A DNA stretch of 64,000 nucleotides from Adineta ricciae (taxonomy: Eukaryota > Rotifera > Eurotatoria > Adinetida > Adinetidae): the NCBI GenBank assembly GCA_905250025.1, contig CAJNOJ010000114.1:186001-250000 (forward strand), read 5' to 3'. The notes beneath the pieces were generated by a model. It worked only from the letters and a program-made list of their open reading frames with translations. It did no database searches and was not told the origin of the DNA. Below, piece after piece: positions 8,202 to 37,902 of this stretch (within the stretch, counting starts at the first letter, position 1; each line of letters opens with the position of its first letter). The position numbers and the translations under genes were made by a program.

Positions 8202-8428
8202 GACAATCGAGGATACTGAGTGAATATTTCGAGATTTACATTCATATAATGCGTGACGTGACGAATGAGACTATATAAGTGTAAACTATAGCAACAAAAT
8301 AAAAATTCTTTTAAAATCCTTCTTTTCCTAACAATTATATCGCGAAGAGTTTATTATTATGAAAATGAGTGAGTAGAGAACTTCATTTGTCGTTAAGAAA
8401 GAACAGATATAACTATGAAAAATTAATG

Positions 8429-11400
8429 TCAATGGGCGAGAGAAAAATCGAAGTAATTTTTAAGTATAGCCATGCTTTGTTTATCATTTTGTTTCTCGGC
8501 TATGTCGAGAGCACTTTGTCCATGATTATCTTGCGCATTGATATCTGCACCAAGTTCAATGAAACGTTGCAGTAGAAAATAATCCTGATGATGAGCGGCA
8601 TGTAACAGATGTCGAGATTCACAAGACAGATCAACCTTCAGCAAGACAGGGTCAGCTATTTGAGTCGATAAGACATATTTCAAGCGAGTAGCTACCTGTT
8701 CAACATTTTCCCTTGCGAACATTCTATGATGTTCGCAATTTACACTAAAGACCTCCAATTCAGATTGCATTATATTTTTACATCCATTGAACGGGTCGAC
8801 GAAATCCGTGTCATTCTTATTATGATTGACGGAAGCTTTGATCAGAACGACACGTCCGGAATAAGATCGCGCCTTGTACTTGGACGATAAAAGCAAGTTG
8901 TTTCTTATCTCATTCTTTAAATATTCGGCTTCCTTTGAACATAATTCTACACCTTGATTAACAACATGCTCGCGAATAGATTGCTCAAATGCTTCATCAT
9001 CGCATATATTGAATTCTCGGTATGTTTCAGTTAGATAAGAGTCTAATAGGATGAGAACTTCGGTACGCTCATCAAGTTTTTCAAGTTGACAGGCCATTTC
9101 GAAGGCAACTTTACCTCCAAAGCTCCAACCACCGAGACGGTAAGGGCCTTTCGGTTGTTTTTTTCTTATCAATGATATATAAAACGTAGCCATACTTTCA
9201 ATATCGTTGAATTTGTTCTCAACATTCGTAAACATAGGGTCATTCAAAGCAATCACAGTGTGTCGACCATGAAAGTACGGCGCCAACGAAGAATATATGA
9301 ATGAAATACCTTCTATCGCATGGATCAAGAAGAGAGGCGTTTCGTCCGTTCCCGAACAGATCGACAATACTGAATCGTCATCAGTCTCTTGAAGTTCTTG
9401 ATTGATATATTTACTCAATTTCTCAATAGTCGGGTTGGCAACGATGGATGTTACGGTAACAGCACGTGTAAAGACTTGTTTGATTTGAATAATCATTGAA
9501 ATGATTAACAAGGAATGCCCTCCTAATTCGAAGAAATTCTCGAGTATTCCGAAGCTGTTTGTGCCTAAAATTGACGACCATATCTGATAAAGACGAAATT
9601 CGGTTAAATTTCGTGGATAAACATGATTTGTCTCATGGGTTTTCAGATAGCTACTGTCTTTAGCGAGATTCATAAGGAATGTCGAATCGACTTTGTCATT
9701 TGTCGTCAAAGGAAACTGATCTATAAAGACATACAGTTGAGGCCGCATATATTCCTGTAGTGTAGAATTGAGATGATTACGTAAATCGAATTCAACTTGT
9801 GAGTGATTTTCTCGGAGACTGCCGATGAAAGCAATTAGTTTTGATGTGCTATCCGTACTTTTTAGTACATGGACTTGAGTCAGGTTCAAATACGATTTGA
9901 TTCGATACTCGATTTCACCTAGTTCCACACGGTAACCACGAATTTTTACTTGATGATCGACTCGACCGGCACACTGTACATCCATGGTCGACAAATAGTA
10001 CACCAGATCGCCTGTTCGATACACACGTGTCTTCGTACTTCCAAGTTCAATTTCAACAAAACTTCTGTGCGTCAGATCATCGCGATTTAGATAACCTCTA
10101 GCAAGACTGGGCCCACCAATGCATAGTTCGCCAATGAGTCCTCTTGGTAAAACTTCGTTGTTTCTATCGAGAATATAGAACGCTGTATACGGATAAGGTT
10201 TGCCGATCGGTAGACCCTTTTCGTGCGCGGCCACATTTGTAACACTTTTCGCATTAGCAAGAAACTCCGAAGCGCCCACGGTTGTTTCGGTCGGGCCATA
10301 TTCGTTGAAAATTTTGTGGTGAGGAAGCTTTTCAAGCCATTGACGCACTGAATCAACGGGCAGAATCTCCCCACCAATAACGAGCGTCGTTAAATAAGGT
10401 AATTGGATCTTATCATCGCTACATAGAGCATTGACCATCTGTATAAAAAAACTTGGTGTGCATTTAATTAGCTGGATACGATTTCGCTCGAGATGATCAT
10501 GAAATTTGAAAATATCACGCTTGATGTCGTCATCACAAATGATCACAGTTCCAGCAGCTAGCATAGGAATCAAGGTACTGGTGACGGACAAGTCAAATGC
10601 AATTGACGAAGAGAAATCATAGAGCATGCCGTCTGTCAGTGAATAGCGATGTTGTAATGAATCATAGTACCATAAAATGTTTTGATGCTCAATAAGAACG
10701 CCTTTTGGAACTCCAGTCGAGCCCGATGTGTAGATTACATAAGCGAGATTACGAAAGATGACAGGTTCGCATCCGGAGGGTAGAATGTATTCGAGTGTTG
10801 TATCATCCTCGCTGCTTTCAAGTAAAACAGAGTCAATCTGACACACAGCAATCTGTGTAGAGAGCCGTGTCTGGCATTCGGACACTCGTTGTTCTGAATC
10901 GACAAGTACCAGACGTGTTTTTGTATCGTTCACAATGAAGAGAAGACGTTCCAAAGGTGTCGCGATGTCAACTGGTACATAGGCACCACCAGCTTTCAAG
11001 ATCGCCAAAATAATAACAAAAAAATTAATAGATCGATCGCAGGAAACGACAACAAGATCGTCCGGTTTTTGTATATATCCTTTAAGGATAAAAAATTGAG
11101 CCAGACAATCTGCCGCTTTGTTTAGTTCACTATAACTAATGGATATCTGGTTATGAACGATAGCTATGCGTCTCGAGTGGCACTTCGCGACGTCCTCTAT
11201 GAGTCCATGAACGGTCGAATTCGGCTTTCGTTTGTACCAAGGATTCTCAACTGTTTGATTGTTCCACATTACCAATTGTTCATTCAGCTCTTCGTTCGAT
11301 AAAAGACGAACATGTTGCGGCGAACAATTTGGCTCAGTGACAATATTGTCTAAAACAGTCAGATAGTGTTCCGCTAAACGTTTGACAATCGATGATGACG

Positions 11401-14400
11401 ACGGAAAATACTTTGTTTTATAGTTGAGAGTAAGTCGAGTGCTTTTATCATCGAAAGTAATACATACAGTAAGAGGATACTCTGTCTTTTCAATTTCACC
11501 CAGAGCATGTTGATCACATTTCAAAGAATACGTATGTCGTTTCGAAACGTCAGGATAATTTTCAATGATAAAAAGAGTATCGAAAAGAGGTTGTCCATTA
11601 CCCAGTTTTCCCCACGATTGAATCTCGCCCAATGATACGGCAGTACCCATTTCTTGTAGACGACAAAGTTGTTCTTGAATGGAAATCAACATATCGATCG
11701 ATTTGTTGTAAGCTGTAGATATACATAGAGGTATTGTATTGATAAAAATACCGATACTACGTTCAATAGATGCGACTGGTACAGTGCGACCTGAAATTGT
11801 TATTCCGAATACGATATCTATACGTTGCAAGCATCGTGAGAGAATGATTGCCCAACATCCAAGCAATAAGTTACTCATCGTGATGGGACAACGGCGACAA
11901 AAAGCATCGATAGATCCGAGTAATTGAGAAGGTAAATGAAGAACAATCTCATCATGGTTTTGTTCGCTCGAAGTTTTTTCAGTATTGGTAATCAGATGTT
12001 GAAAAGCCGATGTCAAATAGCACGGTTCCTTGAGATCTTGCAAATAAGTCTGCCAGAATGTTTTGATATTGTTTAAGTATTCGGTTTTTTGCGTTTCAAT
12101 GTATTGGATAAATTCACCGTATTGAGATCCTCGACAAATGAATTGATGACGTCGATCATAAGCTTTCAAAAACTGTTCGAGTACTAGCGGAGTACTCCAT
12201 CCGTCGAGAAGGATATGATGATGCGTGAAAACAAGTAAATATTCACCAGAGGATAACTTGATTAATGTAATGCGGCACAAGGGTGCTGCATGGAGATCAA
12301 ATAGTTGACCACGATCAGCTATTAAGAAATCGTTCAGTTTCGTTCGTTCGACAGACCAGTCGAGAAAATCAAAGGGGATCCGAATACCAACAGGTTCTAC
12401 TCGTTGATATAGTCCAGCAGTCGCATCCCAATGAAAACTCGATCGAAGTATGTCGTACGAATCGATCAGTATTTGCCATGCATTCAGCACACGCTGTGTA
12501 TCGACGATACCGCTCAATTTGAACACACCTTGAACTAGATACTCATCCGAATGTGGATACTGCAAACAGCGGTATAACATCCCTGACTGCATAGGTGATA
12601 AAGGATAAGATACGACTGGAATACAACTAATTGGTTCTGACGTCGAACAACTCAGTTGAAAGTTACTTATTTCTTGGATAGCTGTTGAAAAATTCTTCAC
12701 TAATTGTTCGATTGTCTTAGATTCAAAATGATTCTGACTGTAAGTAACATAGACATGTAACTGATCGTCTATGATATAACTTTCGAAATCAATCAACCGT
12801 TGACGATGATTCATTGGCCCAATCTTGTCAAGTGCTGGACAACCTTTTGTTTCAATTAACTGTCGATCACTCTTAGTCTTCCATATTCCAAGATAATTAA
12901 ATAGTATATCTGGCTCGGGCAATGCTGCGAGAACGTCGTGTATGTTGGCATTTTCATTTAAATATTTCAGTAGACCAAAACCGAAACCTCGATTAGGGAC
13001 AGCTTGCAGTTGATCATGCACATTTCTCAAATGGTGTATACTCAGTTGTTGATGAGTGCAGTTAAAGTCGAAGAAAATGGGAAATTCTGTTGTAAACCAT
13101 CCGATTGTTCGAGATATGTCCACGTCAGCGTCAACCGCTTCTCGCCCATGCCCTTCTAAAACCAAATAGAATTGATCGTGATGACACCACAATCGAAGAC
13201 TGAATAGTAATGCTGTCAAAAGGGCGTCGTATATGGTGATACTGTAGGATGAAAGCATAGGTAATAGAAGATCTGTAACTTTTTGATCTAGTGTTGTGTG
13301 CACAACACTACTCTGCTGCATAGTGTTCGTTCCGTGATCGAAGTCACGTGGTATTTGTGCGGCATTTTTCGACTTTGAATTCATCTGAGACCAGAATTCA
13401 AATTCATCTGTAATCGTGGTAGATTGAGCTTCGTTTACTAGAGCTGCAGCCCATTCTGAAAATGAGTCTGATGTAGAAGGTGACATTTCGTTACGACCGA
13501 AACAGTGTGAGTTTAGTATATCTTCGAGATCTTCGGTGAAAATTCTCCAAGACACGCCATCAACTACCAAATGATGTATAACAATGTAAAGTCTCAGCCC
13601 GACATCGTCACCAATTGATACTAAAAGAGCATGCCAAAGTTTGCCAATAGTAATATCAAGAGAACTATCAGCATGTTCAATTTTATTTGCTAAGATAACA
13701 TCTCTTTCATTTGCAGGCAAATTTACTAAATTTAGAAGTTCTAGGCTTGTTTCGAGATTAACGGTTGAGGAATCGAAACATGGCAGATGTAACCAACGAT
13801 TTGAAGTTTCATCTTTGTAATACTTTGAAAATAGACCTGGATGTTTGCGTACTAATTCGAACAAACCTTCTTTGGCATGACTAGACTTGATTTCGATGGG
13901 AAATGTCATTAAAGCACATTGACTCCAATGGTTGAAGTTCTCGAAATTTTGTTCGAAAAACCATTGTTGGATAGGCGTAAGTGGAATAACACTATTTTCG
14001 TTAGTCGTTGCTTTTTTTTCACGACAGTTTTGACTTGCATATGAAACTGACGAATCCTTTGGCAATAAAGGTTGAAGTTCATCTGCTAATTTCCGAATTG
14101 TCGGCGACCGGAATAGCTGATTAGTTGTCATCGGTATTCGATACATTCGCCGAATGCTGGAAATCAGTTGAATGGCCAAGATCGAATCACCTCCGAGTTG
14201 AAAAAAATTGTCATTGAGACAAATCGTAGTTCGATGCAGGACACGTTGCCATATATTAAGAAGATCTTTCTCAAGACGAGTTTCGGCTTGAATTTGATTT
14301 TCATCTGATACTCGGTCTAGAAGTCGATCAACGTCATTCGGCATTGGTAATGCCTTTCGATTGACTTTTCCGTTAGGTAAAAATGGAAAACATTCCAAGA

Positions 14401-17400
14401 TAACGTAGGCATTTGGCACCATATAAGCTGGTAGATGTTTCATAGCATGATCACGAAGGGTACGGCGAACTGCTTGTTTCTTCTCACTGTCGAATTCGGT
14501 CCTGAGAAGAACATAAGCAACAAGTGAGATCTGTTCAGCATTGTCTTTTTGAGCCATTATGATTGTTTGCCGTATTTCAGGTACTTTCGACAGAATGCAT
14601 TCGATTTCGGTCAATTCAATCCGATAGCCACGCACTTTGATCTGCTCATCTATACGACCAACAAATTGGAGTGTCCTTCCATCAGAAAGATAACGTACAA
14701 GATCTCCTGTTTTATACAGGCGATTATTACTCAAATGTTTCTTAAATGGATTTACAAGAAATCGTTCGTCCGTCAATGTTGGATTATGTAAATAACCTCG
14801 AGCTACCGATGGTCCACCAACAAAAAGTTCACCTGTAACACCGCATGGAACGTGCATAAAATGCGCGTCAAGTACATATATTTCAACTCCGGGGAAAGGA
14901 ATGCCAATGGGAACTGTTGCAGTTTCATTGTTCCAAGTTAATGTATTACATTCGAAGTATGTCGAATCAATTGTTAGCTCAGTAAGACCATAAGAGCTGA
15001 CAAGTCGTGCTCCAGCACGTAAGCTTTTTCTGATATTTTCATATTCATCTATCGACCACTTTTCCGATCCGCAGATCATCAACGATAGCGATGCCAGATG
15101 GCGTTGTCTCTCAACAAGACTGGTATTCTCAATAATAGCACGCACACTTGCAGGAACGAATTCAGCGCATGTTATACGTTCACGTTCAATGAGAGTCAAT
15201 AATTCTTTTGGTTGAAATAGAGTTTCTCTAGGACAAAGAATCAAACAACCACCGAAGCAGAGAGATCGAACGATATCTCCAACAAATACGTCAAAGGCGA
15301 CATTTGCCATGGAAAGATGGTGCATTTCTGGAGATAATCGATAAATGGTTTTCCATGCCTGAGCAATATTCTGTAGACTTCTGTGTTCGATCATCACTCC
15401 TTTTGGAGCACCAGTCGAACCTGATGTGTATATAACATAAGCTAAATTATGATTTCTCACCGTTGGCAGGTGCTGGTCATCATCAAATCGAGTATTCTCT
15501 GGATTCTTCAACACGTCAAGTTCGATAATCGTACAAGTACCATGATCGATCATCAAATCAGAAAACACAGGTAACGTTTTGTCGATGACCATAAATTGAC
15601 AGCGACTGTGCAGAAGCATGTCACGGATTCGTGGTGATGGATGTTGATTGTCGATAGGTAGAAATACACCACCTGCTTTGAGTATAGCAAGAATCGTAGA
15701 TACAACATCAGAAGATCGATTAAGACATACAGCAACGATTGTGTCGGTATCTACACCGTACTGAGCAAGTGTTGCAGCCATTCTATGCGACTGCATGTTA
15801 AGTTCTGCATACGAAAGAATATGATTAAGATCTGAAACGGCACGAGCGTTTGGACGAAGTGCGGCTTCGCGTTCGAACATCTGGTGTACAAGTAGCGTGT
15901 CATCATACTTCTGAGTTTGGTATGTATCTTTCATCTCAAAGGTATAGATATTCAGTTGTGAGATTGGAATTTGTAAATTTTGAACCATTGATTCAAGTAA
16001 TTTGACGAGATTATTTCCAATGGAGACAACTGTAGATTCATGATAAAGTCCTGGATTATAATCGAATTCAAGAACCAAAGAACGATATGTATCGTTGATC
16101 AACCACAAACATTCCTCGTGCACGGTTACAAACATATCATACAAACAAGTGGTACGTGGTACATGATGCATAGACACTTGAACTTGTTCGCCGAGAATAA
16201 AACTATTTACCGGAGAAGACGATGCATACTCGACATTGAAAACCATTTGAAAGATTGGGTTATAATTAAGTGCGCGATTGACTTCCAGTTGATCAATTAT
16301 CTGTTCGAACGTTACATCTTGGTGTGCATAAGCTTCGATGAGTGTTTCATTGATTTGACGAAAGAATTCGATGAAGTTCAGTTGATTGCCACAGGACATA
16401 CGTACAGGAAGAATACTAACGAAGGAGCCAAGCATATTATCAACATACGGATATTGTCGATTAGCAACGGGAATTCCAATAATAACATCATCCTGGTGTG
16501 TGTATCGATATACTAGAATACCAAAAGCTGTGAGCATCAGTGTGAAAAGTGTCGTGCCGAATTGTTCAACCATACTCAGAAGAGTGTTAGTAAGAAATTG
16601 TGGAAGAGGAAGTTTTACAGTTGCACAGCGATGTTTCATTGTCACTGGTCGAACAGCATAATCGCTGGGGAATACAGATGTGTCCGGTGCCTCGTGAAGT
16701 TTCGTTTTCCAATAATTGAATTGTTCGTCAACAATCTTACCTTTTAACCATCGATGCTGCCAAACTGCAAAATCAGCATAATGAAATCGAACTGGTTGGA
16801 TCAACGGTGGTGCGGTCGACTCATCTTCTCCCCATATATTGTAAAACGACGATAATTCTCGAAGAAAAATTCGTAAGGACCATGTATCCATGATGGTCGG
16901 ATGAAAAACTAGGACGAGCATATGTGTCGACTCGTTGATACGATAGGCAGTTGTTCTCAGGAGAGGACCATATTCTAACGAAAAAGGTTTGTCTAGTTCA
17001 TCTCGAATTAAATCATTTAGACATTTTTCATCATTGACAGTATCGATAAATTGAAATGCAAGTTTCATTTGGGAATACGAAACGATCATTTGCTCACGAT
17101 GCTTAACATGTGTATCCTGTGCTTTATTTTCATCATTTTTCTCGATACGTTCTACAAACACAGTGCGTAGTTCTTCGTAACGCTCGATCATATAGGCTAG
17201 CGCAGCTCGAAAGCGAGCTACATGAAACGGACCATGCACTCGCAATGTAATATGAAAATTGTCTGCATGATCTACACACCAGCGTTTTTCTTGTTGATAT
17301 GCCATTGGGAGTGAAGAAGTGCGATCAAATCGTTGCATAACGGTTGAATTGTACTTGCAAGCTGTATTTTGAAGCTGTATATGCGTACACAGAGCACTCA

Positions 17401-19060
17401 ATGAAGCATCGCGTATCAGTTGGCTGAATTCTAATTCTACTTGATGTTGCTTACGTAATTGTACAATAAGTTGCATAGCAAGAAGTGAATGTCCACCAAG
17501 AGAAAAGAAATTGTCATTCATACCGATCTGTTGAAGAGACAGAAGATCGCACCATATCTTTGCAATTATTTGCTCGATTTCAGTTGCCGGTTCAATGTAA
17601 ACATTAGCTTGAACAAAATCGCTTGTAACAGCATCTGGTAGGAGATTTCGATCAATCTTCCCACTCGGTGTTAGTGGAAAATCAGCAAGGAGCACGAAAG
17701 CGTTCGGTAGCATATAGTCAGATAGAGTTCGTTTTAATTGCTCATAGAGTAGAGAGATTAGTTTAGTTTTCGAATAGGAATATTCCATGTTTCTTTTGAC
17801 ATAAGCAATTAATACATTACCATCATTGGAAGATAGGCAACGTGCGAGTACAATGACATCTTCTATGATAGATGTAGCTATGAGAGCTTTTTCAATTTTT
17901 CGTAAAGAAACCGTGTGACCTGGTGTTTCCACTTGATCGATAGTGCGACCTATGAACTGTAGGTAGCCACTGAGTGAGCAGCAAACAATATCACCTGTAC
18001 CAGTACCGTCAATGTATAACTCTCCGTGTGAAGCGAGTTGGTGGTCATTCGAAAGGATGTATGCTGCACCATTCATAATAGGCTCTCCAATTGGAACGTA
18101 GTCGTCTTCATTATTGGATCCGAATGGATAAGCGTGACTATAAACTTCGTCGTGTCCGTAAACATTGAGTAGTGTTGCTTGAGGAAATGTATGAATAAAT
18201 TGAGTTGCCACAGAAGTTGGCAAAGGTTCGCCACTTGAGATCATCAATGACAGTGCACTCCAATCAATCATAGTGGATTTTTGCAATTTCACTAGAAGCT
18301 TCAGAAGCGATGGAGTCATTGTTAGACGGTTAACACTATATTTGATCATTAACTTGATCATTTCCAATGGATTGTTTTCGACGTGTGACGGAATCACCAG
18401 TAACGGTATACCTTGGAGCAATCCTCCTAAAGTTTCCCATAATAAATCTGAGAAACTTAGTGCAGTCTTGTAGCAACAAACATCACGTTCAATTACGAAT
18501 GGATAGTGTTGCCACATCCATTCAAAGCGATTTTTCAAGTTCTTTATTGTTCCTAAGATTCGCTTTGGAGAATCTGCTGATCCAAATTTATAAAAAATAT
18601 AACCGATCGTAGTTGGTTCATCTACTATATGTTTCGCCTTCACAGCACGCACATTGTCTGCATCAGAATAATCAGATTCCGTATTGAAATATATTATATG
18701 CACCTGATCTTTATAATCATATTCGAGAAAATCGTACGGTTTCTCAGACAATATCCAGTTGAGACCAGTATCCTGTACAATGTAATGAAGCTGTTCTATT
18801 GAATAAGTTAAGCCGAGTGGTACTATCGTACAGTTCATTTTCAATAGAGTTATTAGACATACGATCGAATCGATTGAACGGCACACATTAACACCAACAA
18901 GATTCTGTTGGTCGATCCCATGACGTTTCAATTGAGCTTCCAATTTGTGAATACGTTCGTTAAGATCAGCAAAGGTTTCCCGTCTAGCACCATATATCAA
19001 CGCTGTACTGTTTAGTACGTTTTGAACTAGACGATCAAGAGTTTCTTCAATCCAATTCAT
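8429..19060 (-). CDS. Non-ribosomal peptide synthetase A*-T-C-A-T-E-C-A-T-TE-ANK, copy A
   Basis: Multimodular NRPS of 3543 residues in one uninterrupted exon. Order: degenerate starter adenylation (1-480), carrier (Ser525), condensation (580-1037), adenylation (1055-1575), carrier (LGGDS, Ser1626), epimerisation (1690-2135), condensation (HHILLDG at 2281-2287), adenylation (2612-3130), carrier (Ser3183), thioesterase (GWSFGG, Ser3313), ankyrin repeats (3478-3540). Start: the ATG at 19060 is chosen because copy B shares it; the open frame upstream begins only at a TTG. On the minus strand AATAAA lies at 8350-8355. It should build a short peptide on carrier-bound phosphopantetheine, probably cytosolic since no signal peptide is seen. 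Absence of introns beside intron-dense genes supports horizontal origin. Bdelloid NRPS/PKS genes have been reported to respond to fungal attack; whether this one does is not known. Confidence 0.95.
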   Translation of the reverse strand: MNWIEETLDRLVQNVLNSTALIYGARRETFADLNERIHKLEAQLKRHGIDQQNLVGVNVCRSIDSIVCLITLLKMNCTIVPLGLTYSIEQLHYIVQDTGLNWILSEKPYDFLEYDYKDQVHIIYFNTESDYSDADNVRAVKAKHIVDEPTTIGYIFYKFGSADSPKRILGTIKNLKNRFEWMWQHYPFVIERDVCCYKTALSFSDLLWETLGGLLQGIPLLVIPSHVENNPLEMIKLMIKYSVNRLTMTPSLLKLLVKLQKSTMIDWSALSLMISSGEPLPTSVATQFIHTFPQATLLNVYGHDEVYSHAYPFGSNNEDDYVPIGEPIMNGAAYILSNDHQLASHGELYIDGTGTGDIVCCSLSGYLQFIGRTIDQVETPGHTVSLRKIEKALIATSIIEDVIVLARCLSSNDGNVLIAYVKRNMEYSYSKTKLISLLYEQLKRTLSDYMLPNAFVLLADFPLTPSGKIDRNLLPDAVTSDFVQANVYIEPATEIEQIIAKIWCDLLSLQQIGMNDNFFSLGGHSLLAMQLIVQLRKQHQVELEFSQLIRDASLSALCTHIQLQNTACKYNSTVMQRFDRTSSLPMAYQQEKRWCVDHADNFHITLRVHGPFHVARFRAALAYMIERYEELRTVFVERIEKNDENKAQDTHVKHREQMIVSYSQMKLAFQFIDTVNDEKCLNDLIRDELDKPFSLEYGPLLRTTAYRINESTHMLVLVFHPTIMDTWSLRIFLRELSSFYNIWGEDESTAPPLIQPVRFHYADFAVWQHRWLKGKIVDEQFNYWKTKLHEAPDTSVFPSDYAVRPVTMKHRCATVKLPLPQFLTNTLLSMVEQFGTTLFTLMLTAFGILVYRYTHQDDVIIGIPVANRQYPYVDNMLGSFVSILPVRMSCGNQLNFIEFFRQINETLIEAYAHQDVTFEQIIDQLEVNRALNYNPIFQMVFNVEYASSSPVNSFILGEQVQVSMHHVPRTTCLYDMFVTVHEECLWLINDTYRSLVLEFDYNPGLYHESTVVSIGNNLVKLLESMVQNLQIPISQLNIYTFEMKDTYQTQKYDDTLLVHQMFEREAALRPNARAVSDLNHILSYAELNMQSHRMAATLAQYGVDTDTIVAVCLNRSSDVVSTILAILKAGGVFLPIDNQHPSPRIRDMLLHSRCQFMVIDKTLPVFSDLMIDHGTCTIIELDVLKNPENTRFDDDQHLPTVRNHNLAYVIYTSGSTGAPKGVMIEHRSLQNIAQAWKTIYRLSPEMHHLSMANVAFDVFVGDIVRSLCFGGCLILCPRETLFQPKELLTLIERERITCAEFVPASVRAIIENTSLVERQRHLASLSLMICGSEKWSIDEYENIRKSLRAGARLVSSYGLTELTIDSTYFECNTLTWNNETATVPIGIPFPGVEIYVLDAHFMHVPCGVTGELFVGGPSVARGYLHNPTLTDERFLVNPFKKHLSNNRLYKTGDLVRYLSDGRTLQFVGRIDEQIKVRGYRIELTEIECILSKVPEIRQTIIMAQKDNAEQISLVAYVLLRTEFDSEKKQAVRRTLRDHAMKHLPAYMVPNAYVILECFPFLPNGKVNRKALPMPNDVDRLLDRVSDENQIQAETRLEKDLLNIWQRVLHRTTICLNDNFFQLGGDSILAIQLISSIRRMYRIPMTTNQLFRSPTIRKLADELQPLLPKDSSVSYASQNCREKKATTNENSVIPLTPIQQWFFEQNFENFNHWSQCALMTFPIEIKSSHAKEGLFELVRKHPGLFSKYYKDETSNRWLHLPCFDSSTVNLETSLELLNLVNLPANERDVILANKIEHADSSLDITIGKLWHALLVSIGDDVGLRLYIVIHHLVVDGVSWRIFTEDLEDILNSHCFGRNEMSPSTSDSFSEWAAALVNEAQSTTITDEFEFWSQMNSKSKNAAQIPRDFDHGTNTMQQSSVVHTTLDQKVTDLLLPMLSSYSITIYDALLTALLFSLRLWCHHDQFYLVLEGHGREAVDADVDISRTIGWFTTEFPIFFDFNCTHQQLSIHHLRNVHDQLQAVPNRGFGFGLLKYLNENANIHDVLAALPEPDILFNYLGIWKTKSDRQLIETKGCPALDKIGPMNHRQRLIDFESYIIDDQLHVYVTYSQNHFESKTIEQLVKNFSTAIQEISNFQLSCSTSEPISCIPVVSYPLSPMQSGMLYRCLQYPHSDEYLVQGVFKLSGIVDTQRVLNAWQILIDSYDILRSSFHWDATAGLYQRVEPVGIRIPFDFLDWSVERTKLNDFLIADRGQLFDLHAAPLCRITLIKLSSGEYLLVFTHHHILLDGWSTPLVLEQFLKAYDRRHQFICRGSQYGEFIQYIETQKTEYLNNIKTFWQTYLQDLKEPCYLTSAFQHLITNTEKTSSEQNHDEIVLHLPSQLLGSIDAFCRRCPITMSNLLLGCWAIILSRCLQRIDIVFGITISGRTVPVASIERSIGIFINTIPLCISTAYNKSIDMLISIQEQLCRLQEMGTAVSLGEIQSWGKLGNGQPLFDTLFIIENYPDVSKRHTYSLKCDQHALGEIEKTEYPLTVCITFDDKSTRLTLNYKTKYFPSSSSIVKRLAEHYLTVLDNIVTEPNCSPQHVRLLSNEELNEQLVMWNNQTVENPWYKRKPNSTVHGLIEDVAKCHSRRIAIVHNQISISYSELNKAADCLAQFFILKGYIQKPDDLVVVSCDRSINFFVIILAILKAGGAYVPVDIATPLERLLFIVNDTKTRLVLVDSEQRVSECQTRLSTQIAVCQIDSVLLESSEDDTTLEYILPSGCEPVIFRNLAYVIYTSGSTGVPKGVLIEHQNILWYYDSLQHRYSLTDGMLYDFSSSIAFDLSVTSTLIPMLAAGTVIICDDDIKRDIFKFHDHLERNRIQLIKCTPSFFIQMVNALCSDDKIQLPYLTTLVIGGEILPVDSVRQWLEKLPHHKIFNEYGPTETTVGASEFLANAKSVTNVAAHEKGLPIGKPYPYTAFYILDRNNEVLPRGLIGELCIGGPSLARGYLNRDDLTHRSFVEIELGSTKTRVYRTGDLVYYLSTMDVQCAGRVDHQVKIRGYRVELGEIEYRIKSYLNLTQVHVLKSTDSTSKLIAFIGSLRENHSQVEFDLRNHLNSTLQEYMRPQLYVFIDQFPLTTNDKVDSTFLMNLAKDSSYLKTHETNHVYPRNLTEFRLYQIWSSILGTNSFGILENFFELGGHSLLIISMIIQIKQVFTRAVTVTSIVANPTIEKLSKYINQELQETDDDSVLSICSGTDETPLFLIHAIEGISFIYSSLAPYFHGRHTVIALNDPMFTNVENKFNDIESMATFYISLIRKKQPKGPYRLGGWSFGGKVAFEMACQLEKLDERTEVLILLDSYLTETYREFNICDDEAFEQSIREHVVNQGVELCSKEAEYLKNEIRNNLLLSSKYKARSYSGRVVLIKASVNHNKNDTDFVDPFNGCKNIMQSELEVFSVNCEHHRMFARENVEQVATRLKYVLSTQIADPVLLKVDLSCESRHLLHAAHHQDYFLLQRFIELGADINAQDNHGQSALDIAEKQNDKQSMAILKNYFDFSLAH
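8441..9613 (-). other. Carrier T3, thioesterase and terminal ankyrin repeats
   Basis: T3 has LGGHSL. The TE is a type-I alpha/beta-hydrolase with GWSFGG, a following LLLDSY Asp and a CEHHRMF His, so a full triad is likely. After it (about 8629-8441) comes HLLHAAHHQDY..(L)..ELGADINAQDNHG, an ankyrin repeat, then a partial second one. NRPS proteins normally end with the TE, so the ankyrin tail is an added protein-binding module. Copy A lacks a 108-bp in-frame block of this tail that copy B has. Confidence 0.85.
9671..12613 (-). other. Condensation C2 and adenylation A3, predicted asparagine
   Basis: C2 begins YPLSPMQSGMLY and has HHILLDGWS, the style of condensation domains that accept a D residue from an upstream E domain. 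A3 has intact YTSGSTGVPKG, NEYGPTE, YRTGDLV and GRVDHQVKIRGYRVEL. Its last motif is NDKVDS in place of NGKVDR, but the Lys is kept. The hand-read pocket is D-L-T-K-V-G-E-V-G-K, nine of ten with the asparagine code DLTKLGEVGK; the Asp code DLTKVGHIGK is next closest. Copy B is identical at these ten positions. Confidence 0.75.
12656..14287 (-). other. Carrier T2 and epimerisation domain E
   Basis: T2 has LGGDSI, the Asp-containing form typical of carriers that precede epimerisation domains. E carries HHLVVDGVSWRI (catalytic His and Asp), EGHGRE, RTIGWFT, a PNRGFGFG variant of the PxKGxGYG motif, and FNYLG. All are diagnostic of E domains rather than C domains. The residue loaded by A2 should therefore be converted to the D form. 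Confidence 0.85.
14336..15898 (-). other. Adenylation domain A2, predicted ornithine (basic residue)
   Basis: All core motifs are intact: YTSGSTGAPKG, SYGLTE, YKTGDLVR, GRIDEQIKVRGYRIEL, NGKVNR. Aligned by eye to the phenylalanine domain of gramicidin synthetase, the ten pocket residues read D-V-G-E-M-C-S-I-D-K. The published ornithine code is DVGEIGSIDK, a match at eight of ten. Copy B gives the same ten residues. Lysine or another basic amino acid cannot be excluded. Confidence 0.7.
15950..17599 (-). other. Carrier T1 and condensation domain C1
   Basis: T1 has the LGGHSLLAMQ phosphopantetheine site (Ser525). C1 has FHPTIMDTWS where HHxxxDGxS is usual: the second His (720) and the Asp (725) remain, the first His is Phe and the Gly is Thr. 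The essential His is present, so activity is possible. Later condensation-domain motifs (DDVIIGIPVANR, the MLGxFV region) look normal. C1 would join the starter to the Orn-like residue. Confidence 0.75.
17612..19060 (-). other. Starter adenylation-like domain, degenerate
   Basis: Fold-level match to A domains but with altered core motifs: YKFGSADSPK in place of YTSGSTGxPKG, NVYGHDE in place of NxYGPTE, GTGTGDIV at A7, and GRTIDQV..GH at A8. The terminal SGKIDR with its Lys is kept. In the A4 region SFSDLLWE aligns Ser where amino-acid-activating domains have the Asp that binds the amino group. It may therefore load a substrate without an alpha-amino group, or be inactive. Copy B shows the same changes, so they are not recent damage. 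Confidence 0.7.
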
Positions 19061-22955: not shown

Positions 22956-23285
22956 TCGTTCTGGATCAAACGTTTTGTACGTGATTCCGATATAACAATT
23001 TTCGCATAGCATCGACCGACTTAAGAATGATCTATGTTCTCGACGCTAACGTTAATAGTGGAGAGTGTTGTTTCACGCTGCCGTTAACATAGCGTGTAGA
23101 ACGGATGAGATCGAGAATTTTTCTTGTTCTAAAGCGAGTTGTATATTTGTATGTATAATGTGGACAGCAAAGATGGAACGAATCGGTTCGACGTCCCACA
23201 AACCCATTCTCTGGTCAAATCTACGGTAATCCAGCATAGCAACTACCAATCATTCTGTGTTCGTATGCTTTTAAAATTAATGTTT
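22956..23285. other. No gene recognised (3' flank of receptor gene)
   Basis: Start of copy B. It lies downstream of the minus-strand receptor gene. Unlike the genes around it, it has no clear match to the equivalent flank of copy A (7011-7405). Confidence 0.45.
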
Positions 23286-24242
23286 CTATGGTGATGCGCC
23301 ATGACGTTTACATAAATATAAGCACTTGTTTGCTAATGATCGTAGAGATGCTAGACAGGTTTTTCGAAACATCATGCTCAAATAATAATTGATGTAAAAT
23401 GACATGCCATACTTTGCGTAATAAATGACAACGCTCACTTGTAGAATAAGATATTCGATCTGTTGTCGTTCCACGCTCTTCTTTGCCGAACTAGTAAGCA
23501 TCGAGTATGTGTACGTGGCAGTACGTTGAGCTTCTATTACACTTGCCAGAAACGCATATGGAAATATCATGAGAAGCAGTTGACGATTCGTTCGTTGAAC
23601 GGCAAGTATTCGATCATCAGGGATGGAAACAGTCGCAACACGACGTTTGGATTGTTGTAGATGCTTCCAGGTCATGATACCAAACATGATCATGCCACTA
23701 TGAGGAAGGAGAGCAACGAAAATGTTACCGTACAGCGAAGATATAATTGCTTGAAAGCCAGGCAATGATGCACACGTACCATTACGAATGTCGAATATGA
23801 ATAAATGAAAGCTGCCTAAGAGTAACAAGAAGAGCATGGTGAGAATGAGAGCACGCTGAGCAAACTGAATCGAACTCAGTCGCCGCCAACGATCAAGTGA
23901 TGATGTGGACGCACATCGATCGAATGCTGCCAGCAAAACACACGTCGATGCCATTGCTGGTAAACATACGAGAAGATAAGTACGCATTTTGCAAATACTA
24001 CTGTTTATCAAAGAGACATTATTTCCGAAGTACTCAGTGGAAAAACGTAGTATGATACCGAAATTGCTAAAACATATATCGAATAGTGACGAGCAAATGA
24101 GATAAAGGACGCAGGCTCTCGTTCGAAAGTCTTTCGAGAAAAATGTAATAAGATTGAGTACATTGCCAATGTTGCCTAGGATTAGTACTGTGAACAGACT
24201 GTAGATAACGAAATAAGAGGTGATTTCTGGTAGAGATGCCAT
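23286..24242 (-). CDS. Rhodopsin-like 7TM receptor, intact copy B
   Basis: Single exon, 318 residues, seven hydrophobic segments. TM1 contains GNIGNVLNLI, matching the class-A GN..N pattern. A Cys precedes TM3 (INSSICKMRTY) and TM3 ends AAFDRCAST, with DRC in the place of DRY. The third intracellular loop is short and basic (KHLQQSKRR), and TM7 leads into MMFRKTCLASL, like the post-TM7 helix of class A. It is therefore a probable G-protein-coupled receptor of the plasma membrane; the ligand is unknown. It is downstream of the NRPS on the same strand. The copy A version is broken by a 154-bp deletion. Confidence 0.75.
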   Translation of the reverse strand: MASLPEITSYFVIYSLFTVLILGNIGNVLNLITFFSKDFRTRACVLYLICSSLFDICFSNFGIILRFSTEYFGNNVSLINSSICKMRTYLLVCLPAMASTCVLLAAFDRCASTSSLDRWRRLSSIQFAQRALILTMLFLLLLGSFHLFIFDIRNGTCASLPGFQAIISSLYGNIFVALLPHSGMIMFGIMTWKHLQQSKRRVATVSIPDDRILAVQRTNRQLLLMIFPYAFLASVIEAQRTATYTYSMLTSSAKKSVERQQIEYLILQVSVVIYYAKYGMSFYINYYLSMMFRKTCLASLRSLANKCLYLCKRHGASP

Positions 24243-24541
24243 GACGATCGAGAATACTGAAAAAAGGATTTTGAAATTCAGATCTATAAAGCTTGACGAA
24301 TGAGACTATCGAAGCGTGAAATAGCAACAAATGGAACAAATGGGAAAGCTTTTTAAAGTTCTTTTTTTTCCTTTTAATTGCTTCGTGAAGAATGTATTCT
24401 CAGTTCATTTATATCCATCGGTACTTTACCTTTTTAAGCATGCACCAATTAATATTTCTTTTTTATTCGGAAAATAGAGAACTTCGTTCATTATTAAGAA
24501 AGAGCAGGTATAATTATGAAAAAGTTGGTCTAATCTGAATC

Positions 24542-27500
24542 CTAATGTTCATGAGTGTAAGAAAAATCGAAGTAGTTTCTAAACAGAGTCATGTCTTGTT
24601 CATCGTTATTTTTCTCAGCTATGTCGCGAGCACTTTGCCCATGAATATCTTTTTTGCTGAGGTCAACTTTGTTGGCACATTGACGCTTTAGAATGTCGAA
24701 AATCTTGCCATCGTTCAAATGTGCAGCCCAGTGTACAACAGTTCGTCCGTGATCATCTTGCGCATTGATATCTGCGCCGAGTTCGATGAAGCGTTGCAGC
24801 AGAAAATAATCCTGGTGATGAGCGGCATGTAACAGATGTCGAGATTCACATGACAGATCGAACTTTACCAAGACAGGATCAGCTGTTGCAGTTGACAACG
24901 CATATTTCAATCGAGTGACTATCTGTTCAACATTTTCACTAGCGAACATTTTACTATGTTCGCAATGCACGCTGAAGACCTCGATTTCAGATTGAATTAT
25001 ATTTTTACATCCATTGAACGGATCGATGAAATCTGTGTCATTCGTATTATGATTGACAGAAGCTTTGATCAAAACGACACGTCCGAAATAAGACCGCGGT
25101 TCGTACTTTGACGATAAGATAACGTTATTTTTTATTTCATTTGCTAAATACTCGGCTTCTTTTGAGCATAATTCTACACCTTGATTAGTAACGTACTTGC
25201 GAAGAGATTGCTCAAATGCTTCATCATCGCATATATTGAATTCACGATATGTTTCAGTTAGGTACGAATCTAATAGGATGAGAACTTCGGTACCTTCACC
25301 GAGTTTTTCAAGTTGACAGGCCATTTCAAAGGCAACTTTACCTCCAAAACTCCATCCGCCGAGACGGTAAGGACCTTTTGGTTGTTTTTTCCTGATTAAT
25401 GATATGTAAAACGTAGCCATACTTTCAATATTATTGAACTTATTCTCAGCATCCGTAAACATTGGGTCATTCAAAGCAATGATAGTGTGTTGTTCTTTGA
25501 AATACGGTGCCAATGAAGAATATATGAATGAAATACCTTCTATCGCATGGATCAAGAAGAGAGGCGTTTCGTCTGTTCCCGAACAGATCGACAACACCGA
25601 ATCGTCATTAGTCTCTCGAAGTTCTTGATTGATATATTTACTCAATTTCTCAATAGTCGGGTTGGCAACGATGGATGTTACGGTAATAGTACGCGTAAAG
25701 ACTTGTTTGATTTGAATAATCATTGAAATGATTAACAAGGAATGCCCTCCTAAATCGAAGAAATTCTCGAGTATTCCGAAGTTGTTTGTGCCTAAAATTG
25801 ACGACCATATCTGATGGAGACGAAATTCAGTTAAATTTCGTGGATAAACGTGATTTGTCTCATGGGTTTTCCAATAGCTGCTGTCTCTAGCGAGATTCAT
25901 AAGGAATGTTGAATCGACTTTGTCGTTTGTCGTCAAAGGAAACTGATCTATAAAGACATACAGTTGAGGTCGCATATATTCCGGTAATGTAGAATTGAGA
26001 TGATTACGTAAATCCAATTCAATTTGTGAGTGATTTTCTCGGAGGCCGCCGATGAAAGCAATTAGTTTCGACGTGCTGTCCGTACTTTTTAGTACATGGA
26101 TTTGAGTCAGGTTCAAATACGATTTGATTTGATACTCGATTTCACCTAGTTCCACACGGTAACCACGAATTTTTACTTGATGATCGACTCGACCTGCACA
26201 CTGTACATCCATGGTCGACAAATAATACACCAGGTCGCCTGTTCGATACACGCGTGTCTTCGTACTTGCAAGTTCAATTTCAACAAAACTTCTGTGGGTC
26301 AGATCAACACGATTTAGATAACCTCTAGCAAGACTGAACCCACCAATGCATAGTTCGCCAATGAGTCCGCTTGGTAAAACTTCGTTGTTTCTATCCAGAA
26401 TATAGAACGCTGCATATGGAAAGGGCTTGCCGACCGGTAGACCCTTTTCGTGTATTGCCACACTAGTAATACTATTTGCATCAGCAAGAAACTCCGAAAC
26501 GCCCACGGTGGTTTCGGTTGGACCGTATTCGTTGAAAATTTTGTGGTGAGAAAACTTCTTAAGCCATTGACGCACGGAATCTACGGGTAGGATCTCTCCG
26601 CCAATAACGAACGTAGTTAAATATGGCAGTTGGATCTGATCATCGTTACATAGAGCATTGGCCATCTGTATGAAAAAACTTGGTGTGCATTTGATTAGCT
26701 GGATGCGATTTTGTACGAGATGATCATGGAATTTGAAAATATCACGTTTGATGTCATCATTGCAAATGATCACAGTTCCAGCAGTTAGCATAGGAATTAA
26801 CGTACTTGTGACGGACAAGTCAAATGCTATTGACGATGAGAAATCATAGAGCATGCCGTCAGTCAGTGAATAGCGATGTTGTAATGAATCGCGGTACCAT
26901 AAAATGTTTTGATGCTCAATGAGAACGCCTTTTGGAAGTCCAGTCGAGCCAGATGTATAGATTACATAAGCGAGACTACGAGAAGTAGCAGGTTCGTATC
27001 CGAAAGATAGGATGTATTCGAATGTTGTATCCGCGTCATCGTTGCTTTCGAGTAAAATAGCGTCTATCTGGCATACAGCAACTTGTGTAGATAGACGTGT
27101 TTGGCATTCGGACATTCGTTGTTCTGAGTCGATAAGTACGAGATGCGTTTTTGTATCGTTAACAATGAAGAGGAGACGTTCTAAGGGTGTCGCAATGTCT
27201 ACTGGCACATAGGCACCACCAGCTTTCAAGATCGCCAGAATCAGAATAAAGAAATTAATGGATCGATCGCATGAAATGACAACGAGATCGTCCGGTTTTT
27301 GTATATATCCTTTAAGGATAAAAAATTGAGCCAGACGATCTGCCACTTTGTTTAGTTCACCATAACTAATGGATCTCTGATTATGAACGATAGCTATGCG
27401 TCTCGAATAGCACTTCGCAACGTCCTCTATGAGTCCATGAACAGTCGAATTCGGCTTTCGTTTGTACCAAGGATTCTCGACTGTTTGATTGTTCCACATT

Positions 27501-30437
27501 ACCAATTGTTCATTCAGCTCTTCATTCGATAAAAGACGAACATGTTGCGGCGAACAATTTGGCTCAGTGACAATATTTTCTAAAACGTTCAGATAGTGTT
27601 CTGCTAGACGTTTGACAATCGATGTTGACGACGGAAAATATTTTGTTTTATAGTTGAGAGCGAGTCGAGTAGTTTTATCATCGAAAGTAATACATACAGT
27701 AAGAGGATATTCTGTCTTTTCGATTTCACCCAGAGCATGTTGATCGCATTTCAAAGAATAAGTATGCCGTTTCGAAATGTCAGGATAGTTTTCAATGATA
27801 AACAGAGTATCGAAAAGTGGTTGTCCATTGCCCAGTTTCCCCCACGATTGAATCTCGCCCAATGATACGGCAGTACCCATTTCTTGTAGACGACAAAGTT
27901 GTTCTTGAATGGAAATCAACATATCGATTGATTGGTTGTAAGCTGTAGATATATACAGAGGTATTGTATTGATAAAAATACCGATGCTATGTTCGATAGA
28001 TGCAACTGGCACAGTGCGACCCGAAATTGTTATCCCGAATGCGATATCTATACGTTGCAAGTATCGTGAGAGAATGATTGCCCAGCAACCAAGCAATAGG
28101 TTACTCATCGTAATCGGACAACGACGACAAAATGCATCGATAGATTCGAGTAATTGAGAAGGTAAATGAACAACAATTTCATCATGGTTTTGCTCGCTCG
28201 AAGTTTTTTCAGTGTTGGTAATTAGATGTTGAAAAGCCGATGTCAAGTAGCACGGTTCCTTGAGATCTTGCAAATAAGTCTGCCAAAATGTTTTGATATT
28301 GTTAAAGTATTCGTGTTTTTGCGTTTCAATGTGTTGGATAAAATCACCGTATTGAGATCCTCGACAGATGAATTGATGACGTCGATCGTAAGCTTTCAAA
28401 AACTGTTCGAGTACTAGCGGAGTACTCCATCCATCGAGAAGGATATGATGATGCGTGAAAACGAGCAAATAGTCATCGGACGATAACTTGATTAATGTAA
28501 TGCGACACAATGGTGCCGTATGAAGATCAAATAGTCGACCGCGATCAGCTATTAAGAAATCATTCAGTTTCGTTCTTTCGACAGACCAGTCGAGAAAATC
28601 AAAGGGAATCCGAATACCAACAGGTTCTACTCGTTGATACAGCCCAGCAGTCGTATCCCAATCAAAACTCGATCGAAGTATGTCATACGAATCGATCAAT
28701 ATTTGCCATGCATTCAGCACACGCTGTGTATCGACGACACCGCTCAATTTGAACACACCTTGAACCAGATATTCATCCGAATGTGGATACTGCAAACAGC
28801 GATATAACATGCCCGACTGCATAGGTGATAAAGGATAAGATATGACTGAATTACAACTAATTGGTTCCGATGTCGAAGAGCTCAGTTGAAAGTTACTTAT
28901 TTCTTGGATAGCTGTTAAAAAATTCTTCACTAATTGTTCGATTGTCTTAGATTCAAAATGATTCTGGCTGTAAGTAACATACGCATGTAACTGATCGTCT
29001 ATGATATAACTTTCGAAATCAATCAACCGTTGACGATGATTCATTGGCCCAATCTTGTCAAGTGCTGAACAACCTTTTGTTTCGATTAATTGTCGATCAC
29101 TCTTGGTCTTCCATACTCCAAGATAATTGAATAGTATATCTGGCTCGGGCAATGCTGCGAGGACGTCGTGTATGTTGGCATCTTCATTTAAGTATTTCAA
29201 TAGACCAAAACCGAAACCTCGATTAGGGACAGCTTGCAGTTGATCATGTACACTTCTCAAATGGTGTATGCTCAGTTGCTGATGAGTGCAAGTAAAGTCG
29301 AAGAAAATGGGGAATTCTGTTGTAAACCATCCGATTGTTCGAGATATGTCCACGTCAGCATCAATCGCTTCTCGACCATGTCCTTCTAAAATCAAATAGA
29401 ATTGATCGTGATGACACCACAATCGAAGACTGAATAGTAATGCTGTCAAAAGGGCATCGTACATGGTAACACTGTAGGATGAAAGCATAGGCAATAGAAG
29501 ATCTGTAACTTTTTGATCTAGTGTCGTGTGTACAACGCTACTCTGCTGCATAGTGTTCGTTCCGTGATCGAAATCACGTGGTATTTGTGCGGCATTTTTC
29601 GACTTTGAATTTATCTGAGACCAGAATTTAAACTCATCCGTAATCGTGGTGGATTGAGCTTCGTTTACTAGAGCTGCAGCCCATTCTGAAAATGAGTCTG
29701 ATGTAGAAGGTGAAATTTCGTTACGACCGAAGCAGTGTGAGTTCAGTATATCTTCGAGATCTTCAGTGAAAATTCTCCAAGACACGCCATCAACTACCAA
29801 ATGATGTATAACAATGTAAAGTGTCAGCCCGACATCGTCACCAATTGATACCAAAAGAGCGTGCCAAAGTTTACCAACAGTAATATCAAGAGAACTATCA
29901 GCTTGCTCGATTTTATTTGCTATGATAAAATCTCTTTCATTTGCAGGCAAACTTATTAAATCTAGAAGTTCTAGGCTTGTTTCGAGATCAACGGTTGATG
30001 AATCGAAACACGGCAGATGTAACCAACGATTTGATGTTTCATCTTTGTAATACTTTGAAAATAGGCCCGGATGTTTGCGTACTAATTCAAACAAACTTTC
30101 TTTGGCCTGGCTAGACTTGATTTCTACGGGAAATGTCATTAAAGCACATTGACTCCAATTGTTGAAGTTCTCGAAATTCTGTTCGAAAAACCATTGTTGA
30201 ATAGGCGTAAGTGGAATAACACTATTTTCGTTAGTCGCTGCATTTTCTTTACGACAGTTTTGACTTGCATATGAAACAGACGAATCCTTTGGTAATAAAG
30301 TTTGAAGTTCTTCTGCTAATTTCCGAATTGTCGGCGACCGGAATAGCTGACTAGTTGTCATCGGTATTCGATACATTCGCCGAATGCTGGAAATCAGTTG
30401 AATGGCCAAGATCGAATCACCTCCGAGTTGAAAAAAA
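24542..30437 (-). CDS. NRPS copy B, 3' part: T2-E-C-A-T-TE-ANK (after frameshift)
   Basis: Continuation of the copy B NRPS in a shifted frame, starting at the LGGDS carrier motif. It contains the E domain (HHLVVDGVSWRI, FNYLG), the C domain (HHILLDGWS), the Asn-type A domain with pocket DLTKVGEVGK, the carrier LGGHSL, the thioesterase GWSFGG, and a longer ankyrin tail than copy A. The tail reads GADINAQDDHGRTVVHWAAH, then DILKRQCANKVDLSKKDIHG, making at least two good repeats. The stop is at 24542; AATAAA on this strand lies at 24462-24467. Every catalytic residue seen in copy A is kept, so the gene appears intact apart from the single-base shift at 30431-30438. Confidence 0.85.
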
Positions 30438-37342: not shown

Positions 37343-37902
37343 TTATGTATGTAGGCGTTTTTCGAGCGAAGTAGAACTATGAAAATCAGGCACCTACACT
37401 CGACATGGTTTGTTCCAGCATTTACTTCAGTAATAAACCATGCTTATGAATTTCTTTCTAATAAAACATCAATTATTAAGTTATTCATATTCGTGATATA
37501 CACCTGCGTCGTCTTGCACTTTTTTCTTCGAGAAAGTACTGTTTGATAACAAGGGAGATATTAATATCAGCATATATTTATAGAATTGAAGTTGACGCAC
37601 ATGTAGATATGCATGCGTAAAATCGAGAAAAATCAACATCGCACAAGAACAGAATAGAAACGATCGCGCACAACTACCTACTGACGTCGTTTATTTGTTG
37701 TGACGAACAAGGCAATCAATGATAGAAAAAAAAAGGAAGCGCGCAAGTCGATGCGTTCGCACTACAGATGAGTCACACGCTTGCCAGTAGATAAATACAC
37801 CTTGTAATTATAATTTCAAATAGTAATATATTTTTTTCCAATCGTCTGAAACTTGTTACACAGAAAAATTGTAACTGTGTGTTTCGTCTCGGCGTAATAA
37901 AA
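37343..37902. other. Intergenic region upstream of PSME4, copy B
   Basis: Contains the receptor's AATAAA (37460-37465), the shared upstream element (37641-37713) and a conserved TGAGTCA (37769-37775). Otherwise unremarkable. Confidence 0.5.

What the first reader, a model, noticed from the sequence alone, without database searches (positions are those of the whole stretch)
8429..19060. Intronless animal NRPS with a readable, unusual assembly line
Domain order A*-T-C-A-T-E-C-A-T-TE is seen directly. The hand-read pockets DVGEMCSIDK and DLTKVGEVGK sit close to the published ornithine and asparagine codes. With the E domain after the first, the predicted core is X-(D-Orn)-(Asn), released by TE as a linear peptide, lactam or diketopiperazine. 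I know of no described metabolite of this kind from rotifers.
Basis: partly seen in the sequence, partly recalled or inferred. Interest (0 to 1): 0.85.

Follow-up and report, generated by a model that had tools for sequence, protein, structure and literature searches.

The report
Animal peptide-assembly enzyme, first module decayed
An animal genome, probably that of a bdelloid rotifer, carries a bacterial-style peptide-assembling enzyme that most likely joins D-ornithine to asparagine, while its first module looks dead yet still seems kept by selection; such enzymes are already known from these animals.

Summary
Window 8429-19060 (-) is one open frame of 3543 residues, A*-T-C-A-T-E-C-A-T-TE, in an animal genome (Wnt genes present). 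Corrections: (1) the A2 pocket was read one column off; it is DVGEIGSIDK, exactly a printed ornithine signature, and A2 stays among Orn/Dab-type codes (support 99) with pocket residues masked. (2) A3, DLTKVGEVGK, fits asparagine by code; its phylogeny is unresolved once the pocket is masked. Module 1 looks inert, so D-Orn-Asn is likelier than X-D-Orn-Asn. A1-T1-C1 is still constrained (omega 0.32; rest 0.17). (4) An ankyrin-like tail follows TE. (5) The second copy (24542-35297) is probably the other allele: the homology breaks fall on single-N joins. Bdelloid NRPSs are known (PMC11258130, PMC10531068): a new member of a known kind, with no close bacterial relative found (A2 45% identical at best). 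Product, expression and bdelloid identity are untested.

The parts
8429..19060 (-). NRPS copy 1, 3543 aa, one uninterrupted frame, A*-T-C*-A-T-E-C-A-T-TE-Ank
17618..19051 (-). A1, degenerate adenylation domain (residues 4-481): P-loop KFGSADSPKR, about 35 residues missing between core motifs A6 and A7, A8 broken, A10 Lys kept; best blastp relatives have VDxVxSLAD-type codes
17336..17548 (-). T1 carrier domain, LGGHSLL with Ser intact
15956..17269 (-). C1, LCL-type condensation domain with HPTIMDT instead of HHxxxDG
14324..15940 (-). A2, pocket DVGEIGSIDK (ornithine)
14021..14248 (-). T2 carrier domain, LGGDSIL
12611..13945 (-). E, epimerisation domain, HHLVVDGVS intact
11261..12565 (-). C2, condensation domain in the clade of most after-E (D-accepting) domains, HHILLDG intact
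9650..11233 (-). A3, pocket DLTKVGEVGK (asparagine by code)
9356..9583 (-). T3 carrier domain, LGGHSLL
8681..9340 (-). TE, thioesterase with Ser (GWSFGG), Asp and His conserved in 11 of 11 aligned sequences
8432..8629 (-). C-terminal ankyrin-like tail (about 36 residues shorter than in copy 2; below the Pfam cut-off here)
24542..35297 (-). NRPS copy 2, 91% identical protein in two overlapping frames (30417-35321 and 24542-30547) separated by a one-base length difference in a T run within T2; probably the other allele
22956..49352 (.). Piece B between the single Ns at 22955 and 49353, collinear with pieces A (4596-22954), C, D and E: probable alternative-haplotype contig

Best explanation
This is an NRPS of bacterial descent, resident in an animal chromosome, that works as a two-residue line. 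A2 loads L-ornithine on T2, E turns it to D-ornithine, C2 joins it to asparagine that A3 has loaded on T3, and TE releases D-Orn-L-Asn, as a linear dipeptide or a ring (diketopiperazine). The N-terminal A1-T1-C1 part is the remnant of a former starter module (nearest to VDxVxSLAD-type domains, which I recall as beta-alanine type). It no longer loads or condenses, but is kept as a folded part of the machine: C1, for one, should sit against A2. Shown here by sequence: order, motifs, codes, clades, constraint. Inferred: substrates, inertness of module 1, product, release mode.
For: Open 3543-aa frame with omega 0.20 between the two copies over 3542 codons. A2 code DVGEIGSIDK; PMC3992020 gives the same string as an ornithine signature, itself a sequence-based assignment (passage). 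A2 sits in an Orn/Dab-code clade, SH-aLRT 96 (13 rows) and 100 (16 rows), and 99 (17 rows) with pocket residues masked. A3 code: DLTKIGEVGK, one residue away, is named in the Asp/Asn section of PMC12283262 as 'also compatible' with cyano-alanine (passage); that Glu rather than His in this code means Asn rather than Asp is recalled. E and C2 clades. TE triad kept in 11 of 11. A1 motif loss against 246 bacterial A-domain stretches, 226 without contained repeats. C1: Pro at the second His in 0 of 284 other readable C-type domains, contained repeats removed. Omega A1-T1-C1 0.322 (95% CI 0.233-0.437) against 0.169 (0.140-0.201) for A2 to TE. Two phosphopantetheinyl-transferase-type stretches in the genome.
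Against: No expression, activity or metabolite data. T1 keeps its Ser, and A1 keeps the A10 Lys and TGD, so module 1 might be rescued in trans. A3 is not placed robustly once pocket residues are masked. 30 of the 284 other C-type domains also lack the second His (heterocyclisation, PALxAD and HQ types among them), so its absence alone does not prove inactivity. Pairwise omega cannot say which copy is constrained.
Confidence: 0.55

Rival explanations
1. Tripeptide line: T1 is loaded in trans by another A domain (or a weak A1), C1 still condenses, product X-D-Orn-Asn.
For: T1 Ser intact; A1-T1-C1 still under purifying selection; trans-complementation of inactive A domains is described for albicidin, ramoplanins and enduracidins (PMC8949500 passages).
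Against: C1 has lost the second His and the Gly of HHxxxDG in both copies; the motif is described as essential for peptide-bond formation (PMC8949500 passage).
Confidence: 0.17
2. C1 (with or without A1-T1) is a recruitment platform for a tailoring enzyme, as X domains are in glycopeptide synthetases.
For: LCL-related domain with a broken motif kept under constraint; X domains are inactive LCL-related domains that recruit P450s (PMC8949500 passages).
Against: X domains sit in the last module before TE (recalled); no P450 or other tailoring gene was recognised among the non-NRPS frames of the window that were given to Pfam, which are a part of all its genes.
Confidence: 0.1
3. Different substrates from the predicted ones, because pocket codes drift in diverged animal copies (A3 above all: Asp or cyano-alanine).
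For: A3 branch is long and its masked placement unsupported; trees holding it with Asn-code or with Asp-like (GH) domains are both not rejected, p-AU 0.795 and 0.982, and both scored better than the free quick search.
Against: A2 is 10 of 10 with the Orn code; A3 has Glu where the Asp-like codes have His.
Confidence: 0.13
4. The locus is decaying and makes nothing.
For: Module 1 motifs lost; copy 2 frame broken; ankyrin tail shortened in copy 1.
Against: Copy 1 is fully open; omega 0.17 over A2-TE; core motifs of A2 and A3, the E and C2 motifs and the TE triad are intact.
Confidence: 0.05
5. Copies 1 and 2 are true tandem paralogues, not alleles.
For: They are adjacent in the assembly, 92.6% identical over 11.5 kb.
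Against: The homology of A, C, D and B stops at single Ns; D matches B over its full length and C over all but 5 bases; a PSME4-type gene that runs in order along B would be cut in two between A and C.
Confidence: 0.08

Closest known systems
Bdelloid NRP/PKS genes of Nowell et al. 2024 (PMC11258130)
   Same: Multidomain NRPS in an animal genome, bacterial-like, low similarity to bacterial proteins; passes that paper's three-domain screen
   Different: Their focal cluster is a PKS-NRPS hybrid predicted to make a cyclic heptadepsipeptide, flanked in A. ricciae by transporters and a P450 (passages); this is a pure NRPS next to GPCR-like, PSME4-type and ATPase genes. Whether it is in their tables is unknown (supplements not readable).
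Rotifer NRPSs of PMC10531068 (12-79 NRPS clusters per bdelloid species, its Table 1)
   Same: Same kind; variable architectures and predicted substrates
   Different: The held text does not contain the whole words orn or asn; its substrate figure is not held
GrsA/TycA-type D-initiation (A-T-E followed by a D-accepting C), recalled
   Same: A2-T2-E then C2 would work the same way if module 1 is inert
   Different: Here a broken C and a degenerate A-T stay attached in front, and the residue is Orn, not Phe
Two-module lines in L077 and L080 (genomes of a cyanobacterial-phylum search)
   Same: Same two pocket codes in L077 (DLTKVGEVGK and DVGEIGSIDK); one residue off each in L080
   Different: Opposite order (Asn-type code first), separate proteins, reductase-type end instead of TE
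Bacilli-class NRPS in L075
   Same: Same order: A(DVGDIGCIDK)-T-E then C-A(DLTKIGEIGK)-T
   Different: Part of a longer line on two proteins; not especially similar overall (ranks 29 and 83 of 187 bacterial frames for A2 to TE)

Membership tests
Modular NRPS | Condensation, adenylation and carrier domains in modules, with release domain | tested here: met
   3 A, 3 T, 3 C-type, 1 TE
Modular NRPS | At least one full set of C, A, T and release motifs intact | tested here: met
   A2, T2, E, C2, A3, T3, TE intact; A1 and C1 are not
Modular NRPS | Activity | not testable with these tools
   needs biochemistry
Bdelloid NRP/PKS set (PMC11258130) | PF00501, PF00550 and PF00668 in one protein at E <= 1e-5 | tested here: met
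   criterion from passage
Bdelloid NRP/PKS set (PMC11258130) | Host is a bdelloid rotifer | tested here: inconclusive
   Wnt genes show an animal; 82 condensation-domain matches in 130 Mb fit a bdelloid; TGTGGG search was uninformative because its control is the same repeat
Bdelloid NRP/PKS set (PMC11258130) | Member of the bdelloid condensation-domain clade; subtelomeric; induced by fungus | not tested
   No bdelloid reference sequences or expression data held
Ornithine-activating A domain | Pocket code DVGEIGSIDK | tested here: met
   code from a passage of PMC3992020
Ornithine-activating A domain | Groups with Orn/Dab-code domains with pocket residues masked | tested here: met
   17 rows (one domain present twice, L062 and L074), support 99
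Asparagine-activating A domain | Pocket code of DLTKxGEVGK type | tested here: met
   the Asn-Asp distinction in the code is recalled
Asparagine-activating A domain | Groups with such domains with pocket residues masked | tested here: inconclusive
   (unmasked) support 98, 8 rows; (masked) unresolved
X domain (glycopeptide synthetases) | Inactive LCL-related C domain in the last module before TE, recruiting P450s | tested here: not met
   LCL-related with broken motif, but it lies in module 2, not the last; recruitment not testable
Ankyrin-repeat protein | Ankyrin repeats above family cut-off | tested here: inconclusive
   Copy 2 Ank_4 27.5 bits over cut-off 22.7; copy 1 21.1, below it; AlphaFold confidence low there

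The most novel reading that the evidence does not exclude
An animal has turned a three-module bacterial synthetase into a dipeptide machine by silencing loading and condensation of module 1 while selection keeps the dead A-T-C part as a scaffold or docking platform, and has added a eukaryotic ankyrin tail behind the thioesterase that places the assembly line in the cell.
Probability: 0.22. Interest if true: 0.68.

Novelty: new member of a known kind. Interest (0 to 1): 0.42.

Why it matters
Bdelloid NRPSs are thought to make antimicrobial compounds, but PMC11258130 calls what they make a key question, and the products in the passages I saw are software predictions. This gene is one uninterrupted frame and has one exact substrate code and one near-standard one, so its product can be predicted and tested. 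It also shows how a captured assembly line is remodelled inside an animal: a module silenced but conserved, and an ankyrin-like tail added.

Tried and rejected
Donor hunt: 40 bacterial loci match the whole protein at 23-34% identity. A2 reaches at best 42% in 398 genomes of the class of G001 (3 of 398 at E <= 1e-110) and 45% in 386 genomes of the phylum of G004 (9 of 386) (at most three candidates scored per genome, groups sampled). On plasmids 2812 records match, all under 60%; the six listed are at 29.6-31.3%. No donor is named. Module order Orn to Asn was sought in the 12 neighbourhoods: 1 of 12 (L075) has it, 2 of 12 (L077, L080) have the reverse with a reductase-type end; L075 is not otherwise closer.

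A1 ancestry: the two best blastp hits are VDWV(I/V)SLADK domains (228 and 220 bits, next 196); for residues 151-310 a third domain with code VDAVFSLAD (L059) ties with the best. FxDxxWE and YGxxEV stretches match. The masked tree does not place A1 with the two VDWV domains (L059 was not in it). The beta-alanine label is recalled; no held paper has the codes I searched. In this group position 235 is not Asp anyway, so its absence in A1 is not counted as decay.

Telomere repeat search: none in the window; the genome control is uninformative. AlphaFold of A1 (mean pLDDT 76) gives an A-domain fold, which does not decide activity. The tail of the TE model is of low confidence.

The first idea that the window holds a tandem gene duplication was dropped after finding the single Ns. 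The ankyrin-NRPS literature search gave 8 papers, seen as a listing with abstract starts only; none names such a fusion there.

Full report
What is there. Window 8429-19060 (-) is a single open frame of 3543 codons from the first Met, 3571 from stop to stop. Pfam finds three adenylation, three condensation-type and three carrier stretches and one thioesterase. With models built from the window and refined on bacterial relatives, the order is A*-T-C*-A-T-E-C-A-T-TE, followed by an ankyrin-like tail.

Where it lies. The window is G000:C114:186001-250000 of a 130.46 Mb assembly with 1033 contigs and 82 condensation-domain matches, a lower bound. The Wnt family model gives 20 matches there and none in 14 prokaryote controls. 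Contigs C8 and C85 carry both Wnt and condensation-domain matches, so NRPS genes sit in an animal genome. Near this NRPS lie GPCR-like frames (my reading; no Pfam match), a PSME4-type HEAT gene and a P-type ATPase. A bdelloid host fits the published counts (12-79 NRPS clusters in four bdelloid species, 0 in Brachionus; PMC10531068) but was not proven: my telomere test was uninformative.

The second copy. A 91% identical copy lies at 24542-35297, in two overlapping frames because of a one-base difference in a T run. The window has five single Ns: 4595, 22955, 49353, 53066 and 56775, which I read as assembly joins. Piece B (22956-49352) is collinear with A (4596-22954), then C, D and E. Homology with B runs to the very last base of A, over all but 5 bases of C and over all of D, and ends on the last base of B; about 350 bases at the start of B, about 610 of B between the A and C matches, about 390 between the D and E matches, and the first 217 of E are unmatched. 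A PSME4-type gene runs in order along B (mid-HEAT profile positions 1-40, 110-193 and 293-437 in the frames at 38950, 39554 and 40113); on the other haplotype A holds the match to the first part, and C resumes at profile position 291. A tandem duplication would have to cut that gene at a join. I therefore read B as the other haplotype, placed between A and C by the assembler, and copy 2 as the allele (probability about 0.9). Its broken frame may be a sequencing error or a real allele; copy 1 is intact. A search with residues 1041-3543 finds no other close copy among the candidates scored (19 of 191): the rest are 23-38% identical.

Pockets. In alignments with bacterial domains A2 reads DVGEIGSIDK. 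DVGEIGSIDK is given as an ornithine signature in PMC3992020, itself a sequence-based assignment (one passage). A2 groups with Orn/Dab-code domains at SH-aLRT 96 and 100 (76 rows), and at 99 when the ten pocket residues are masked in all rows (66 rows). A3 reads DLTKVGEVGK. PMC12283262 names DLTKIGEVGK in its Asp/Asn section as also compatible with cyano-alanine, and says that Asp and Asn domains can share a code (passages); the reading GE = Asn, GH = Asp is recalled, and no held paper has DLTKVGEVGK. Unmasked, A3 groups with D(L/A)TK(I/V)GEVG domains (support 98, 8 rows). Masked, it does not: supports are 53 and 75/73 for mixed groups, and holding A3 with Asn-code or with GH-code domains is not rejected in either case, both scoring better than the free quick search. 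So A3 = Asn rests on the code.

Condensation domains. In a tree of 298 C-type domains, E falls in the E clade (72 rows, support 100) and C2 in a clade of 70 rows (support 100) that holds 24 of the 26 other domains found right after a C-type (E) domain; one of the two left falls in the E clade and one in C1's. C1 falls with LCL-type domains (124 rows, support 84). Its motif is HPTIMDT, and HPIIMDT in copy 2. With contained repeats removed, 254 of 284 other domains have the second His; 30 do not, and none of the 30 has Pro. Of 8 distinct other rotifer C domains held, 7 keep HHxxxDG and one is of the Cy type; 14 of 14 readable P-loops of other rotifer A stretches keep Thr and Lys (loci partly overlapping). 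That sample is of best hits and so leans towards intact ones.

A1. Against the bacterial consensus YTSGSTGxPKG it has YKFGSADSPKR; about 35 residues between A6 and A7 are missing; the A8 stretch is broken; the A10 Lys and TGD are kept; copy 2 shows the same losses. Its best blastp relatives are two VDWV(I/V)SLADK domains from the cyanobacterial-phylum search (31% and 28%), and over residues 151-310 a third of code VDAVFSLAD ties. I recall VDWVISLADK as beta-alanine, but no held paper contains it, and the masked tree leaves A1 unplaced.

Selection. Between the two copies omega is 0.20 overall. A1-T1-C1 has 0.322 (95% CI 0.233-0.437), A1 alone 0.376 (0.238-0.582), and A2 to TE 0.169 (0.140-0.201); module 1 differs from the rest (Fisher p 0.0005). 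So the silent part is under weaker but real constraint, in at least one copy. Ks goes from 0.13 in A1 to 0.48 in TE, with dips in the short T2 and T3, which may reflect uneven gene conversion.

Thioesterase and tail. Ser, Asp and His of the TE are invariant in 11 of 11 aligned sequences; 0 of 9 bacterial relatives in that alignment has the tail. The tail scores as Ank_4 above cut-off in copy 2 and just below it in copy 1, which is about 36 residues shorter there. Its AlphaFold model is poor; the TE part matches AB3403, NocB and EntF thioesterases.

How it works. With A1 and C1 silent, A2-T2-E can start the chain with D-Orn, as A-T-E starters do (recalled for GrsA/TycA), C2 adds Asn, and TE lets D-Orn-Asn go, linear or as a diketopiperazine. 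C1 may be kept because it packs on A2 (C-A platforms, recalled; inference). The chief rival is trans-loading of T1, described for other lines with a dead A domain (PMC8949500 passages), but it needs a working C1.

Known or new. NRPSs in bdelloids, their horizontal origin and their response to a fungus are in print (PMC11258130: abstract and 12 passages; PMC10531068: 12 and 7 passages). My searches found one held paper with bdelloid, ornithine and NRPS together, on a springtail (listing only), and none tying an ankyrin tail to an NRPS in what the listing shows. Supplements could not be read, so this gene may be listed there. I file it as a new member of a known kind, with an unusual silent but constrained first module.

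Noticed in passing
window 22955, 49353, 53066, 56775 (and 4595): Single Ns, read as assembly joins; four of the five coincide with breaks of apparent tandem duplications, so the assembly probably places alternative haplotypes head to tail. Other 'tandem duplications' read from this assembly deserve the same check.
   Followed up: yes
window 38950-42846 (piece B), 49626-50321 (piece C): PSME4 (proteasome activator PA200) type HEAT gene in several exons, in order on piece B and split over pieces A and C.
   Followed up: partly
window 48725-49350 and 58174-61558: P-type cation ATPase gene; the second copy runs on to the C-terminal domain, the first is cut at a single N.
   Followed up: partly
window 8429-19060 against 24542-35297: Ks between the copies is 0.13 in A1 and 0.48 in TE, as after partial gene conversion of the 5' half.
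   Followed up: no
L077 4222-12094 and L080 4625-12398: Pair of NRPS genes in genomes of a cyanobacterial-phylum search: C-like domain with PALCAD motif, A(DLTK(V/I)GEVGK)-T, then C-A(DVGE(I/V)GSIDK)-T-reductase; suggests an Asn-Orn aldehyde.
   Followed up: partly
G000:C768:8906-12319: Another uninterrupted NRPS frame of 4163 codons in the same genome.
   Followed up: no
window 1214-2548, 3453-4661, 6027-7010: Two F-box genes and a Kelch-repeat gene at lower coordinates than the NRPS.
   Followed up: no
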